Part shown: piece after piece, positions 13,126 to 27,327 of the stretch | Position numbering within the stretch: the first letter of the stretch is position 1 | Layout of the letters: every line of letters starts with the position of its first letter | NCBI GenBank assembly: GCA_903840265.1 | Contig: CAIMFH010000141.1 | Span: 1-40,033, forward strand | DNA length: 40,033 bases | Origin: an uncultured Schlesneria sp. | Lineage (GTDB): Bacteria > Planctomycetota > Planctomycetia > Planctomycetales > Planctomycetaceae | Reading direction: 5' to 3' | Program-made: the position numbers and the translations under genes | The notes under the pieces: generated by a model | Seen by the model: the letters and a program-made list of their open reading frames with translations, nothing else | Databases searched by the model: none | What the model was told of the DNA's origin: nothing

Positions 13126-13171
13126 AAGAATAGGACTTATAGGTCCCATGCGACCCATAAGTCCTATTCTT
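13126..13171. terminator. Perfect 15-bp hairpin made of the GGGACYTAT-type repeat
   Basis: AAGAATAGGACTTAT (13126-13140) and ATAAGTCCTATTCTT (13157-13171) are exact reverse complements around 16 nt. The hairpin lies between the convergent AraC (stop 13096) and four-helix-bundle (stop 13177) genes and is well placed as a bidirectional terminator. It is built from the same 9-bp units found at three other places in the next 750 bp. Confidence 0.65.
13139..13165 (-). repeat. GGGACYTAT-type array 1 (three units)
   Basis: Read on the minus strand, three adjoining 9-mers occur: AGGACTTAT, GGGTCGCAT and GGGACCTAT. The array lies just downstream of the four-helix-bundle gene and forms the interior of the hairpin there. 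Confidence 0.75.
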
Positions 13172-13176
13172 GGTCT

Positions 13177-13755
13177 CTATTCTTCATTCTCAGATCGTCG
13201 TTTGTTGCGGTGCTGCAACCGAGCGCGTGTCATCCGTTCTCGCATACCTCCTTCTTTCACGAAATCCTGTTCCAGTCGGCGAATCTGTTGATCCAGCAGG
13301 TAGTTGGTTTGATGGATCAGGCAGATTGCGATATTCGCGACAACTTCGCCAGGTCGTGTTTCCACATAGGTCCGATAGGTCTCATAAGTCCCATCAGGCT
13401 GCTGCCCCAACTTACGGACGAACTGCGCTTCAGCCGAGTCTTTCGTCCACAGCTTCAGATCACGGACACGCAGGAAATCTTGGTAGTCGACCAATAGCTC
13501 TTCCAAGCTTGCACGGGCCACATTGGTTAGTTTGATTTCTGTTTCTTTGGAAGTGCCCGACGCTTTGCTTCCTTCAACGATATTTTGCTTGCCTGATCTT
13601 GCAGCCTGAACCATCTGGTCGACTGTGCGATCTCCTTTGGAAAGAAATCGCTGACAGAAGCGAAACGTCAAATCATAGACAACTTCTGCTTTCTGATAGG
13701 AAAGCAACTCTTGGTAGTGGCCATGTGGCGGGATGAAGCCGGGTGAGTCGGGCAT
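13177..13755 (-). CDS. Four-helix-bundle protein with suffix domain
   Basis: Residues about 10-115 match the S23/Avd-like four-helix-bundle family in its 'suffix domain' subtype: FIPPHGHYQELLSYQKAEVV, then SGKQNIVEGSKASGTSKETE and ARASLEELLVDYQDFL. Residues 122-130 (GTYETYRTY) are translated from three 9-bp repeat units. The suffix (about 131-175, with HQTNYLLDQQIRRLEQDFV) follows and ends in a basic tail. At 192 residues it is longer than the 120-residue core family. Core-family relatives include proteins encoded in 23S rRNA intervening sequences and the Avd accessory protein of diversity-generating retroelements, where a basic bundle binds nucleic acid. No reverse transcriptase is in the window. 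Repeat units of the same type flank it on both sides, suggesting a mobile or repeat-associated cassette. Confidence 0.85.
   Translation of the reverse strand: MPDSPGFIPPHGHYQELLSYQKAEVVYDLTFRFCQRFLSKGDRTVDQMVQAARSGKQNIVEGSKASGTSKETEIKLTNVARASLEELLVDYQDFLRVRDLKLWTKDSAEAQFVRKLGQQPDGTYETYRTYVETRPGEVVANIAICLIHQTNYLLDQQIRRLEQDFVKEGGMRERMTRARLQHRNKRRSENEE
13366..13392 (-). repeat. GGGACYTAT-type array 2, inside the four-helix-bundle gene
   Basis: Three contiguous 9-mers on the coding strand (GGGACTTAT, GAGACCTAT, CGGACCTAT) are read in frame as G-T-Y, E-T-Y and R-T-Y at residues 122-130, exactly between the helical core and the suffix. Confidence 0.85.
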
Positions 13756-13777
13756 GATCGTTGATTGGAAGACAAAT

Positions 13778-13804
13778 GGGACTTATGGGAAGAATAGGAC
13801 TTAT
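13778..13804 (+). repeat. GGGACYTAT-type array 3 (three units, opposite orientation)
   Basis: GGGACTTAT, GGGAAGAAT and AGGACTTAT follow each other on the plus strand, 23 nt upstream of the four-helix-bundle start, opposite in direction to arrays 2 and 4. The middle unit contains the AAGAAT that also borders array 1. Confidence 0.75.
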
Positions 13805-13846
13805 GATTATGTTGGTGCCTGCCGAAAACAAGGTCTTATACGTCGC

Positions 13847-13864
13847 CTAAGTCCCATCGGTCCC
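13847..13864 (-). repeat. GGGACYTAT-type array 4, forming the esterase C-terminus
   Basis: On the minus strand GGGACCGAT is followed by GGGACTTAG. The units are in frame with the large esterase gene and supply its last residues (G-T-D-G-T) and its stop codon TAG. Confidence 0.8.
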
Positions 13865-15934
13865 ATTCTTCACAACCTCACCATTCGGGCCCCAAGCCTC
13901 CACCTGCCGCAGATTTTTCACCGACAAGGCTCGATAACAATCCGGCAAATCGAAACTCTTCAGCACCCCCGGCACGAAAGATGACAGCGGCCATTTATAG
14001 TGTTCGGATTCGGCGATGCTGGTCCAGGACGCGAGCGCATGCTTCAATGTCACTCGCTTCACGTCGTCAGACACGACCGCGGCCAGAGTGGCCGGGATTG
14101 TTCCCCAGCCTTTCGCGGCCAGATGAATCTCGTCACGGCCAACGGACTTCAGCCAGGAGATCACCTGCAAGATGTCGAATGCTCGTTGAACAGGGTAGGG
14201 GGCGCCGAGCATGATCGAATGAGCGGCATAGAAGTAATCGTTTCCGTAGGGCACCAGGAACTGGTTTGGTCCGCAAGTGTCGGGCCGTGAATCGCCGCTG
14301 CCGCGTACGTCGACTGCATAGAAATCTGATTCAGATTCACTGGCGATTAATTCTTTGATAAACGCGTCTTCTCGCAGTTCCACGTCACTCGATTGATGAG
14401 CCACATATAACACGCATCGCTTTGGTGTGGCCGGGGGACGAGCTGAGCGTGGCTTTTCATCCAGGCGATACACGATCGCTCGGACACCCGGCTCTGTCTG
14501 CACGGCGTAAGTTGTAAAAGCGACTTCTGGATACTTACGGCCGCTGACTGGCCGCAGGATTTCATATTCGGGCGGGCTCGCGGATCGCATAGGAAGAATT
14601 GCTTCGATCGCTTTGCGGACGGCAACCGCATCAAGCTCGCCTCGCTTACGGGCTAGATCCTCCGCAGTCGCCTGCGTGAATGAAAACATCGTGCGCGAGC
14701 CCAGATCTTTCACTTGGCCCTTCGGCGTACACTGCAGCGTCTCATCTTTCTCGATCATCAGCTTCGGTTCGGCACTCCCTTTGGTCACATTCGTCTGCTC
14801 GTTGAAGAAGCCATACATCGCTTCACGATTCGGTTGAGTGTACCCATGCTCATTCGGGCCGATGAACAACCGGATGTTCTGCTCAGCACCTACCAGCGAC
14901 CACAGCTTCTTCAATCGTTGGTACGTTTCCGTCGAACCGCGAGCGTCAAAATAGTCTTGCTCGGCAGCCAGAATGATGACCGGCTTGGGGGCCATCGCCG
15001 CCAGAAAGTCGCCGTGATCCAGTCCCAATTTCAAGGCGAGCGGCGGACATTGTTCCGTGTCGGCAGGAAGTTCGTTGTCAAAGTTGCGTCGAAAGGTTGT
15101 CACGGCACAACTGGGGGCGGCCATGGTCCAGCGGGGCTCGACGCCACTCAGCCACATCGTCATTGTTCCGCCACCAGAATTGCCCGTAATTCCCACATGA
15201 TTCGGATCGACTTCAGATCGCGTCAGCAGATAATCCAACGCTCGAATGCCATCCCACGCCCGCCACGAACCGAAGAAGTCTCCGATCAGGAGCTGCTGAT
15301 TGCCTCCCAGCAAGTGCTCATGCACTCCGACGCCGACGGTCGATTTGCTGTGGTGATCATCCAGATATTGAAGGCGTTCGCCTTGCCCGATCGGATCGAA
15401 GATCAGGACCACGTAACCCTGTCGAGCCAACCCTTGAGCGAACGACTGATAGGCCTCGGCTGCTTTTCCATTCGCCGAATGTCCGCAAGACCCCACGACG
15501 CCCGGCAACGGAAACTGACGCCCCTTGGGAACGTACAGATTCGCCGTGACCAGAAACTCGGGTCGACTCTCGAAGATGACGTTTTCAATTCGATAGGCGT
15601 CGCGCTCGACCACCGAAGTCACTCGAGGTTTCAGCGGAGTCCGCTCGGGAAACGGACCGAAGCACTCGCGAATCAGACCTCGAACCGTTTGCACATGCGC
15701 TTCCGCTTCGGCCTTCGTCGTCAACTTGGCCTGACGTGCCTCGGCCAGCTTCTGTGCCGCCGCGACCTGGGTGCCCTGATAGTCCTGCATCATTCGAGGA
15801 AACCGATTCAGTGGCGCAAGCGCCCCTGGTTTGTCACCTGATTGAGCCAACACGGGCGTTCGTTGCGTCAGACCGGCCAACCCCAAAGATGACAACGCCA
15901 GCAGTTCACGTCGTGTCAAAGCAGATGGATGCAT
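13847..15934 (-). CDS. Tat-exported alpha/beta hydrolase (acetyl xylan esterase-like)
   Basis: A 695-residue exported hydrolase. The N-terminus carries a twin-arginine signal (TRRELLALSSLGLAGL, cleavage near AQS), so it is probably folded before export. The first half is an acetyl-xylan-esterase/S9-like alpha/beta hydrolase with Ser253 in the nucleophile elbow GNSGGG. A second hydrolase-like half follows (FYAVDVRGSGDSRPD and later AAKGWGTIPATLAAVV), so it may be a two-domain enzyme with one degenerate site. Similar planctomycete proteins are thought to deacetylate polysaccharides; the substrate here is inferred only from family. The last five residues and the stop codon lie in repeat units of the neighbouring four-helix-bundle locus, so the original C-terminus was probably replaced or trimmed. 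Confidence 0.85.
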   Translation of the reverse strand: MHPSALTRRELLALSSLGLAGLTQRTPVLAQSGDKPGALAPLNRFPRMMQDYQGTQVAAAQKLAEARQAKLTTKAEAEAHVQTVRGLIRECFGPFPERTPLKPRVTSVVERDAYRIENVIFESRPEFLVTANLYVPKGRQFPLPGVVGSCGHSANGKAAEAYQSFAQGLARQGYVVLIFDPIGQGERLQYLDDHHSKSTVGVGVHEHLLGGNQQLLIGDFFGSWRAWDGIRALDYLLTRSEVDPNHVGITGNSGGGTMTMWLSGVEPRWTMAAPSCAVTTFRRNFDNELPADTEQCPPLALKLGLDHGDFLAAMAPKPVIILAAEQDYFDARGSTETYQRLKKLWSLVGAEQNIRLFIGPNEHGYTQPNREAMYGFFNEQTNVTKGSAEPKLMIEKDETLQCTPKGQVKDLGSRTMFSFTQATAEDLARKRGELDAVAVRKAIEAILPMRSASPPEYEILRPVSGRKYPEVAFTTYAVQTEPGVRAIVYRLDEKPRSARPPATPKRCVLYVAHQSSDVELREDAFIKELIASESESDFYAVDVRGSGDSRPDTCGPNQFLVPYGNDYFYAAHSIMLGAPYPVQRAFDILQVISWLKSVGRDEIHLAAKGWGTIPATLAAVVSDDVKRVTLKHALASWTSIAESEHYKWPLSSFVPGVLKSFDLPDCYRALSVKNLRQVEAWGPNGEVVKNGTDGT

Positions 15935-26619: not shown

Positions 26620-27327
26620 CTAGTGAATGGGAGTAATCCGGACGTTGAACTCTTGATCACGGTGAGAGTTGAACTCTTGAGCAACGTGAGAATAGTCGGC
26701 AGTGACGACCTCGACCATGGCGTGGTCAATGGTTTCCATATGACCGCTGGAAAGTAGCCAGGCCAGTCCGGCGCAGTTGAGTGTCACGGCGAACCAGAAC
26801 AGGATCTGGAATTCGGATTTGCTGACTTTATGCCGGAAGGCCTCCTGCGCGAACAGGGCACCGGGCCAACCGCAGAAGAGTCCGACAAATTGCAGCTTTA
26901 ATTCTGGGGTACGCCACCGGTCGTCGTTCGCGGCGGCTTTATCCTGGCCGTACATCTTGAACGCGACGGCACTCATGAAAGCGTAGACTAGGGCGAGGCT
27001 GGCCGGAAACTGCGAAGTCAGACAACCCGCGGTGATCGCGATCAGGAAGAGTGCGGCGATTCCTTTTCGGGGCAGGCCTCTTGGTGTCGTGGCCTTCGGC
27101 TGAACCGCCTGCACTGTAGCGGTGACAAATCCAGGGCGTGAAGCGTGGAAGCGGCCTTTGCCGTCAATACGTATTTCGTAGTCGATGACCGTGCCGACGA
27201 CTGGTCGACGTGAGCCGCGTCGAAATGCGGTGATATGAACGAAGGTTCGGATGCCGCTCCCTTCCGGGGTGACGAAGCCGAAGCCCCGTTCGTCGTTCCA
27301 CTCGATGATGCGTCCGACGTATCGCAT
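26620..27327 (-). CDS. Cold-shock domain plus DUF1294 membrane protein
   Basis: Residues 1-65 form a cold-shock nucleic-acid-binding domain with RNP1-like RGFGFV and RNP2-like TFVHITAF. Two transmembrane helices follow (about 85-120, GIAALFLIAITAG and LALVYAFMSAVAF), then the DUF1294 signature: KMYGQDKAAA, RTPELKLQFVGLFCGWPGAL, RHKVSKSEFQILFWF. The CSD-DUF1294 fusion occurs in many bacteria and is thought to be a membrane-tethered RNA-binding protein of unknown target. The 235-residue protein ends with a short duplicated motif (SHVAQEFN, SHRDQEFN) from a DNA tandem repeat. The ATG at 27327 has GGAG five bases upstream. It is the second gene of the leftward run that starts with the ankyrin gene. 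Confidence 0.85.
   Translation of the reverse strand: MRYVGRIIEWNDERGFGFVTPEGSGIRTFVHITAFRRGSRRPVVGTVIDYEIRIDGKGRFHASRPGFVTATVQAVQPKATTPRGLPRKGIAALFLIAITAGCLTSQFPASLALVYAFMSAVAFKMYGQDKAAANDDRWRTPELKLQFVGLFCGWPGALFAQEAFRHKVSKSEFQILFWFAVTLNCAGLAWLLSSGHMETIDHAMVEVVTADYSHVAQEFNSHRDQEFNVRITPIH
26644..26691 (-). repeat. 24-bp tandem duplication at the DUF1294 gene 3' end
   Basis: Two adjacent 24-bp units (26644-26667 and 26668-26691) match at 21 of 24 positions. They encode two eight-residue copies of SHxxQEFN in frame, so the duplication lengthened the protein without breaking it. Confidence 0.7.

What the first reader, a model, noticed from the sequence alone, without database searches (positions are those of the whole stretch)
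13126..13873. A 9-bp GGGACYTAT-type repeat surrounds and enters a four-helix-bundle gene
Within 750 bp, four short arrays of the same 9-bp unit occur: downstream of the gene (13139-13165), inside it (13366-13392), upstream in the opposite direction (13778-13804) and just beyond (13847-13864). The unit is exactly three codons; inside the gene it is read as G-T-Y, E-T-Y, R-T-Y between the helical core and the suffix domain. The core family includes Avd of diversity-generating retroelements and proteins of rRNA intervening sequences. The simplest model is a small mobile or self-amplifying cassette whose product recognises the repeat, with the repeat also varying a protein loop. The arrays and reading frame are seen; the mobility and recognition are inference.
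Basis: partly seen in the sequence, partly recalled or inferred. Interest (0 to 1): 0.85.

Follow-up and report, generated by a model that had tools for sequence, protein, structure and literature searches.

The report
Four-helix gene with cognate hairpin repeats
A small bacterial gene of unknown function travels with hairpins built from 9-letter DNA repeats, and similar hairpins are scattered through several genomes that carry the gene, which looks like a partnership between a repeat family and a protein related to Avd.

Summary
The window gene (13177-13755, minus) is a TIGR04258 four-helix-bundle protein. Its "arrays" are two hairpins, 13126-13171 and about 13766-13874, plus three units in the core-suffix linker. 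For 52 such genes (30 of 392 phylum genomes), 53 array calls lie within 1 kb and 1 farther out (reversed motif 0 and 1). In 80 named loci from many phyla, 129 calls lie within 600 bp and 4 farther out (reversed 0 and 2). Gene-less arrays and hairpins are also dispersed: six genomes have 13 or more array matches, all gene-positive; no gene-negative genome (362) exceeds 5. Flavour follows protein lineage; the AANGGACNN pattern matches 125 times in the one tested genome whose gene has AAGGGACNN arrays and 0-2 times in 59 others. A second flavour test was mixed. Best reading: a REP/RAYT-like system with an Avd/IVP-type protein in place of the transposase. Binding and mobility are inferred. The variable-loop idea fails for the main lineage (linker 99 nt in 92 of 124). 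Paper searches showed no description.

The parts
13177..13755 (-). four-helix-bundle suffix-domain protein gene, 192 aa
   Evidence: TIGR04258 E 3.1e-25 (87.8 bits, cut-off 40) and TIGR02436 E 1.2e-7 (31.9, cut-off 24); PF05635 29.5 bits, below its cut-off of 33.8; the only TIGR04258 match in its genome
13489..13710 (-). IVP/Avd-like core helices
   Evidence: PF05635 match by genome search, 28.8 bits, below cut-off; AF2 helices 18-37, 43-65, 70-97
13204..13347 (-). suffix domain: last long helix and basic tail
   Evidence: TIGR04258 match; AF2 helices 136-167 and 170-191
13366..13392 (-). linker array, three 9-mers GGGACTTAT GAGACCTAT CGGACCTAT, read GTY ETY RTY
   Evidence: arrays at the same place in relatives; fixed linker length in 92 of 124
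13126..13171 (.). downstream hairpin made of 9-mer units
   Evidence: fold -27.2 kcal/mol, z -9.18, 0 of 200 shuffles as good
13766..13874 (.). upstream hairpin with + units at 13778-13804 and - units at 13847-13864
   Evidence: fold -37.6 kcal/mol, z -3.75, 0 of 200 shuffles as good; units
13847..13864 (-). two units (GGGACCGAT GGGACTTAG) that form the last codons and stop of the hydrolase ORF 13847-15934

Best explanation
A REP/RAYT-like pairing of a repeat family and a gene. A one-gene cassette encodes an Avd/IVP-type four-helix-bundle protein with a basic C-terminal helix, in some lineages followed by a topoisomerase-type zinc ribbon. It is flanked by hairpins whose arms are tandem 9-mers of a lineage-specific flavour. 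In some genomes hairpins of the same flavour, without the gene, lie dispersed, in the window's own genome next to 3' ends of genes. Shown: the gene-array association, the shared slots, the genome-wide co-occurrence, one clear case of flavour specificity, and hairpin folding of chosen examples. Inferred: that the protein binds the folded repeat (as RNA or single-stranded DNA) through the 9-mers, that this promotes copying or retention of the hairpins, and that the cutting or copying enzyme comes from elsewhere in the cell, since I recognised no nuclease in the cassette.
For: Near versus far array calls: 53 vs 1 and 129 vs 4, reversed-motif controls 0 vs 1 and 0 vs 2; these count overlapping calls on the two strands apart, and merged they are 107 within 700 bp of the 80 genes, 0 in the core-coding part. 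Any-flavour period-9 arrays: 82 of 130 near vs 14 of 130 far; other periods 20 vs 21 and 18 vs 26. Genome-wide: at least 3 matches in 9 of 30 gene-positive and 2 of 362 gene-negative genomes, Fisher p 1.3e-9. Flavour: AANGGACNN x3 matches 125 times in G145 (gene L132 has AAGGGACNN), 2 each in G160 and G386, 0 in the other 57 of 60; flavour-protein Mantel r 0.465, 0 of 2000 permutations (37 of 124 loci usable). No core or suffix domain in 40 fetched and 14 own-genome dispersed loci. Own-genome copies: palindrome score above all 30 shuffles in 10 of 15 distinct loci; in eight copies of one register, arms pair at free positions better than arms of different copies (0.65 vs 0.46, 1 of 2137 derangements). 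Array-bounded duplication in G160.
Against: Only 22 of the 52 phylum genes have a GGACNNATN array within 1 kb, 20 of the 80 named loci have none within 600 bp, and 17 of 30 gene-positive genomes have no dispersed match. RTGGAC-flavour arrays are dispersed in G145, G160 and G324, where I found no gene of that flavour (genomes 89, 61 and 81% complete), and that pattern also matches 1-7 times in 9 of the 30 gene-negative genomes. Gene-negative G141 and G344 have 5 and 3 GGACNNATN matches. Co-inheritance of gene and arrays could give the Mantel signal without binding. No near-identical strain pair with and without a hairpin was available. Five of 15 own-genome loci do not beat their shuffles as palindromes, and in G145 the free positions of paired arms often do not match, by eye.
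Confidence: 0.66

Rival explanations
1. Autoregulation plus passive spread: the hairpins are RNA structures in the UTRs that the protein binds to control its own message; the dispersed ones are host terminators or RNA stabilisers that share the site, not mobile copies.
For: Arrays sit just upstream and downstream of the gene. Own-genome dispersed copies sit at gene ends: 8 convergent, 6 tandem, 0 divergent among the 14 of 16 loci with both neighbours called by mechanical ORFs.
Against: High counts of dispersed matches are confined to gene-positive genomes. I saw no long T-run after the own-genome hairpins printed, by eye; no terminator scan was run.
Confidence: 0.2
2. The hairpins are REPs mobilised in trans by a resident Y1 transposase (RAYT/IS200) or an RT; the four-helix gene is itself a passenger flanked by REPs.
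For: Y1_Tnp matches occur in all six array-rich genomes: G000 4, G145 19, G160 4, G256 2, G324 2, G386 6.
Against: Y1 copy number does not track arrays: G120 28 and G247 24 Y1 matches with 4 and 2 array matches. No RVT_1 match in G160 (61% complete) or G386 (94%). Flavour tracks the four-helix lineage. I did not look at the flanks of the Y1 genes.
Confidence: 0.15
3. Chance or compositional repeats: codon-scale repeats (GAC codons, 9 = 3 codons) that happen to lie near the gene.
For: A generic GGAC period-9 pattern is common: 100 of 392 genomes, and G236 has 77 hits without a TIGR04258 match.
Against: Near-far contrast, reversed-motif and other-period controls; hairpin z-scores -3.75 to -9.35 in the ten chosen examples folded.
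Confidence: 0.02

Closest known systems
REP/RAYT system (REPtron, REPIN)
   Same: Short palindromes dispersed at gene ends, same repeats flanking one gene, gene presence tracks repeat abundance, repeat type follows protein lineage. These are hallmarks given in PMC2817692 (abstract and one section read) and PMC3116915 (passages).
   Different: The protein is a four-helix bundle, not a Y1 transposase; the arms are tandem 9-mers with free positions; matches number tens to about a hundred per genome; a third array lies inside the gene.
Diversity-generating retroelement Avd
   Same: Fold resemblance: 8ub7_B (DGR RNP) ranks fifth in the PDB fold search, Foldseek probability 0.99 but E 0.41. That this chain is Avd is recalled.
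   Different: No RT match on the window's contig; no TR/VR pair was seen, but none was searched for systematically.
23S rRNA intervening-sequence protein (IVP, PF05635/TIGR02436)
   Same: Core domain homology (TIGR02436 over cut-off, PF05635 below it); top fold hit 2gsc_B, E 0.025. That IVS elements are stem-flanked is recalled, not from a call.
   Different: Neighbours are protein genes, not rRNA; the three other IVP-family genes of the same genome have no arrays.
MITEs
   Same: Gene-less inverted-repeat copies alongside gene-bearing ones.
   Different: No target-site duplication or transposase shown.

Membership tests
TIGR04258 four helix bundle suffix domain | profile score over the curated cut-off | tested here: met
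   87.8 bits vs 40
PF05635 23S rRNA IVP | Pfam gathering score | tested here: not met
   29.5 vs 33.8 bits; the related TIGR02436 is met, 31.9 vs 24
REP/RAYT system | Y1 tyrosine transposase gene flanked by the repeats | tested here: not met
   the flanked gene is TIGR04258 and has no Y1 match; whether some Y1 gene elsewhere is flanked by the hairpins was not tested
REP/RAYT system | dispersed palindromes matching those that flank the gene | tested here: met
   in some gene-positive genomes only (13 of 30 have any match)
REP/RAYT system | gene presence correlates with repeat abundance | tested here: met
   Fisher p 1.3e-9 at 3 or more matches
REP/RAYT system | gene flanked by repeats in inverted orientation | tested here: inconclusive
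   a hairpin on each side in the window; among 80 loci, F-R order in 9 of the 13 upstream or downstream slots with two or more arrays, the other 4 RFR, FFR, RR and RF; 54 slots show one array only
Diversity-generating retroelement | adjacent reverse transcriptase | tested here: not met
   the own genome's two RVT_1 matches are on contigs C19 and C161, not on the window's C141
Diversity-generating retroelement | TR/VR pair | not tested
   no systematic search made
23S rRNA IVS | insertion inside 23S rRNA | tested here: not met
   window neighbours are an AraC/GyrI-like regulator and an alpha/beta hydrolase
Transposable element | target-site duplication or occupied versus empty site | tested here: inconclusive
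   hsdS-hsdR junction holds a four-helix gene in L178 and L193, none in L204; array-bounded duplication in G160; no near-identical pair, no target duplication shown

The most novel reading that the evidence does not exclude
A new class of protein-repeat system: an Avd/IVP-type four-helix-bundle protein acts as the sequence-specific reader of modular 9-mer hairpins (conserved GGAC-like block plus free positions) and drives their spread, with lineages carrying orthogonal flavours (ATNGGACNN, GATCNGACN, RTGGACNNN, AANGGACNN, GGTCNGACN).
Probability: 0.45. Interest if true: 0.92.

Novelty: new variant of a known kind. Interest (0 to 1): 0.8.

Why it matters
Outside DGRs I know of no tested function for four-helix-bundle IVP/Avd proteins (from recall). 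A cognate hairpin with lineage-specific flavours gives a concrete substrate to test. It would extend the REP idea to a non-transposase protein, and natural flavour variants provide ready-made specificity swaps. The cassette's frequent place beside type I R-M and CRISPR-Cas genes (37 of 129 loci) adds a link to defence loci.

Tried and rejected
Generic GGAC period-9 pattern over 392 genomes: too noisy (GAC-codon-like repeats; G236 77 hits without the gene); dropped as a test but reported. RVT_1 and Y1_Tnp as drivers: counts do not track arrays. Synteny of the G153 locus in eight genus mates: matches too scattered for a clean empty site. "Hairpins inserted in frame inside long ORFs": of the eight ORFs looked at, most look like antisense or low-complexity readings; only L333 looks like a real coding context, so no claim is made. 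Strand orientation of the linker array: ambiguous, because GGACCTATA and its complement differ little, so not used. Plasmid search: one distant hit (Prevotella nigrescens, 45.5%); phage search: none. Literature: searches listed no paper that I recognised as describing this repeat or a TIGR04258-repeat link (listings seen; one search found 0 papers). PMC10910872: one passage seen, a figure legend that expands the label 23S rRNA IVP. PMC10053308: passages seen, on PF05635 and Avd. PMC6006769: passages seen, nothing on this repeat.
Full report
OBSERVATION. The 9-mer is enriched in the window (18 vs 7.07 expected, 0 of 100 shuffles), and ten of the 18 hits lie in 733 bp around one gene. That gene, 13177-13755 minus, is the only TIGR04258 match of its genome. 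Folding shows that the non-coding units form two hairpins, one on each side of the gene. The upstream hairpin's outer arm supplies the last codons and the stop of the hydrolase ORF 13847-15934.

GENERALITY. TIGR04258 is sporadic: 30 of 392 genomes of the phylum, 52 matches; the window's genome is the only positive one of the 28 of its family in that set (family list). I examined all 52 with the flank that the contigs allowed, up to about 9 kb. Arrays of three GGACNNATN units (up to 3 mismatches of 18) give 53 calls within 1 kb (108 kb of sequence) and 1 in about 620 kb farther out; the reversed motif gives 0 and 1. Overlapping calls on the two strands are counted apart. Only 22 of the 52 genes, in 18 genomes, carry this flavour within 1 kb; many of the others carry another flavour and some show none. 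There, 129 calls lie within 600 bp and 4 farther out, in 60 of 80 loci (reversed motif 0 and 2). Merging overlapping strands leaves 107 within 700 bp: 46 upstream, 24 in the linker, 1 in the suffix part, 36 downstream, 0 in the core. Without assuming a motif, period-9 tandem arrays occur near 82 of 130 genes and in 14 of 130 far windows of equal length; other periods give 20 vs 21 and 18 vs 26. Two of the 132 loci lacked a far window.

ANATOMY. Arrays recur at fixed slots: before the start codon, in the linker between core and suffix, and just after the stop. The AF2 model (pLDDT 86.5, 18 sequences) places the linker before the last long helix. The core-suffix gap is 99 nt in 92 of 124 loci, 96 in 3 and 102-486 in 29, in frame in 124 of 124 (8 of 132 loci lacked a joint core and suffix match). 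So in the main lineage the linker is fixed, and the loop-variation idea is not supported there. Some lineages add a topoisomerase-type zinc ribbon: PF01396 is over its cut-off in the four proteins that I scanned because they seemed to have one (L111, L123, L112 and the second gene of L178).

DISPERSED COPIES. With GGACNNATN x3 (up to 1 mismatch; overlapping matches and gene loci included), the six genomes with 13 or more matches (G145 90, G256 67, G160 30, G000 27, G324 25, G386 13) all carry the gene; the highest gene-negative genome, G141, has 5. Totals are 268 matches in 30 positive and 40 in 362 negative genomes. Seventeen of 30 positive genomes have none. In the window's genome the clearest copies are about 64-bp palindromes with three 9-mers per arm and a short loop. 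The palindrome score exceeds all 30 shuffles in 10 of 15 distinct loci; L005, L018, L021, L136 and L144 do not. In eight copies that I took because they share one register (seven other loci left out), free positions pair within a copy at 0.65, G-U allowed, versus 0.46 between copies (1 of 2137 derangements). In the 14 of 16 loci with both neighbours called, 8 are convergent, 6 tandem and 0 divergent (mechanical ORF calls). In G145 many copies are facing pairs of four- to five-unit arms. No core or suffix domain was found in the 40 fetched and 14 own-genome dispersed loci scanned.

FLAVOUR. AANGGACNN x3 gave 125 exact matches in G145, whose gene L132 has AAGGGACNN arrays, 2 each in G160 and G386, and 0 in 57 others. 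The 60 genomes were the 30 positives and 30 negatives, the latter chosen largely because they had GGAC-type hits. The Mantel test of flavour against protein distance gives r 0.465 (null maximum 0.334, 0 of 2000 permutations) on the 37 of 124 loci with enough non-coding array. Against: RTGGAC-flavour arrays are dispersed in G145 (26 matches), G160 (7) and G324 (10) without a gene of that flavour found, perhaps because these assemblies are incomplete, and the pattern also matches 1-7 times in 9 of 30 gene-negative genomes. In G093, G256, G275, G308 and G061 that flavour occurs only at the gene; in G386 5 of 8 matches do.

MOBILITY AND CONTEXT. In G160, two gene copies share 858 bp at 89% identity, from 34 bp before the upstream array to within the downstream array; beyond that I saw only a 52-bp match to the next ORF's 3' end and short repeat matches. 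Homologous hsd operons carry different four-helix genes between hsdS and hsdR (L178, L193) or none (L204, where another palindrome lies) (hsdM and hsdS of L178 confirmed by Pfam; hsdR by homology only). Of 129 loci, 18 have type I R-M homologues and 19 others have homologues of CRISPR I-C Cas proteins (four of these by Cas1 alone: L105, L110, L186, L249) in the fetched flank. Of 120 control loci, 1 and 0 do (0.40 Mb vs 1.42 Mb). The controls are pattern-hit loci, not random, and the one hit, L289, is itself at the L133 gene. Among 70 named loci with both neighbours called, 5 lie between two gene starts, and in 61 of 76 the upstream neighbour is on the same strand.

MECHANISM. Shown: cassette, slots, hairpins in chosen examples, co-occurrence, and one strong flavour match. 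Inferred: the protein reads the 9-mers in the folded strand, as its fold relatives suggest (2gsc_B of the IVP family; 8ub7_B in the DGR RNP). Those fold matches are weak by E-value (0.025 and 0.41; none of 727 reached 0.001). The copying enzyme is unknown; Y1 and RT counts do not track the arrays.

COMPARISON. The published hallmarks of RAYT/REP systems (repeats flanking the gene, coevolution, abundance tracking the gene; PMC2817692 abstract and one section; PMC3116915 passages) are largely met, except the defining transposase. It works like a REP system but is not a RAYT system.

Noticed in passing
L230, L238, L239, L245; L236: The four-helix gene lies between cas7 and cas4 of type I-C CRISPR loci in L230, L238, L239 and L245, and between cas4 and cas1 in L236 (Pfam check of L230 cas7 and L238 cas4). 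All seven gene-positive f46 genomes have a locus with cas homologues in the flank (L087, L088, L091, L092, L094, L100, L101), as have L093 and L130 from other families.
   Followed up: partly
L178, L193, L204: Four-helix genes of different lineages sit between hsdM and hsdS and between hsdS and hsdR of type I R-M operons; L204's hsdS-hsdR junction holds an unrelated palindrome (CCCCAACGGGGTTGC type) instead.
   Followed up: partly
G236 (C183, C234, C241 among the places listed): 77 GGAC period-9 matches, mostly GGACGMGAG in those listed, in a genome without a TIGR04258 match; nature unknown.
   Followed up: no
L048 1305-1607 in gene-oriented coordinates: Several 7-bp tandem arrays (AGACGAC, CAGTCGG, CAGTAGG) beside the G145 four-helix gene, a different repeat class.
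   Followed up: no
L333 2037-2115: A facing pair of AAGGGACNN arrays seems to lie in frame inside a real-looking coding region (KGTKGTKGTEGTE).
   Followed up: partly
L108 819-1142 and 1345-1736: Arrays of 36 and 43 nine-base copies, ATGGACNNN flavour, around two suffix matches with one core match upstream, in G093.
   Followed up: no
window 26644-26691: Two copies of a 24-bp unit, not examined.
   Followed up: no
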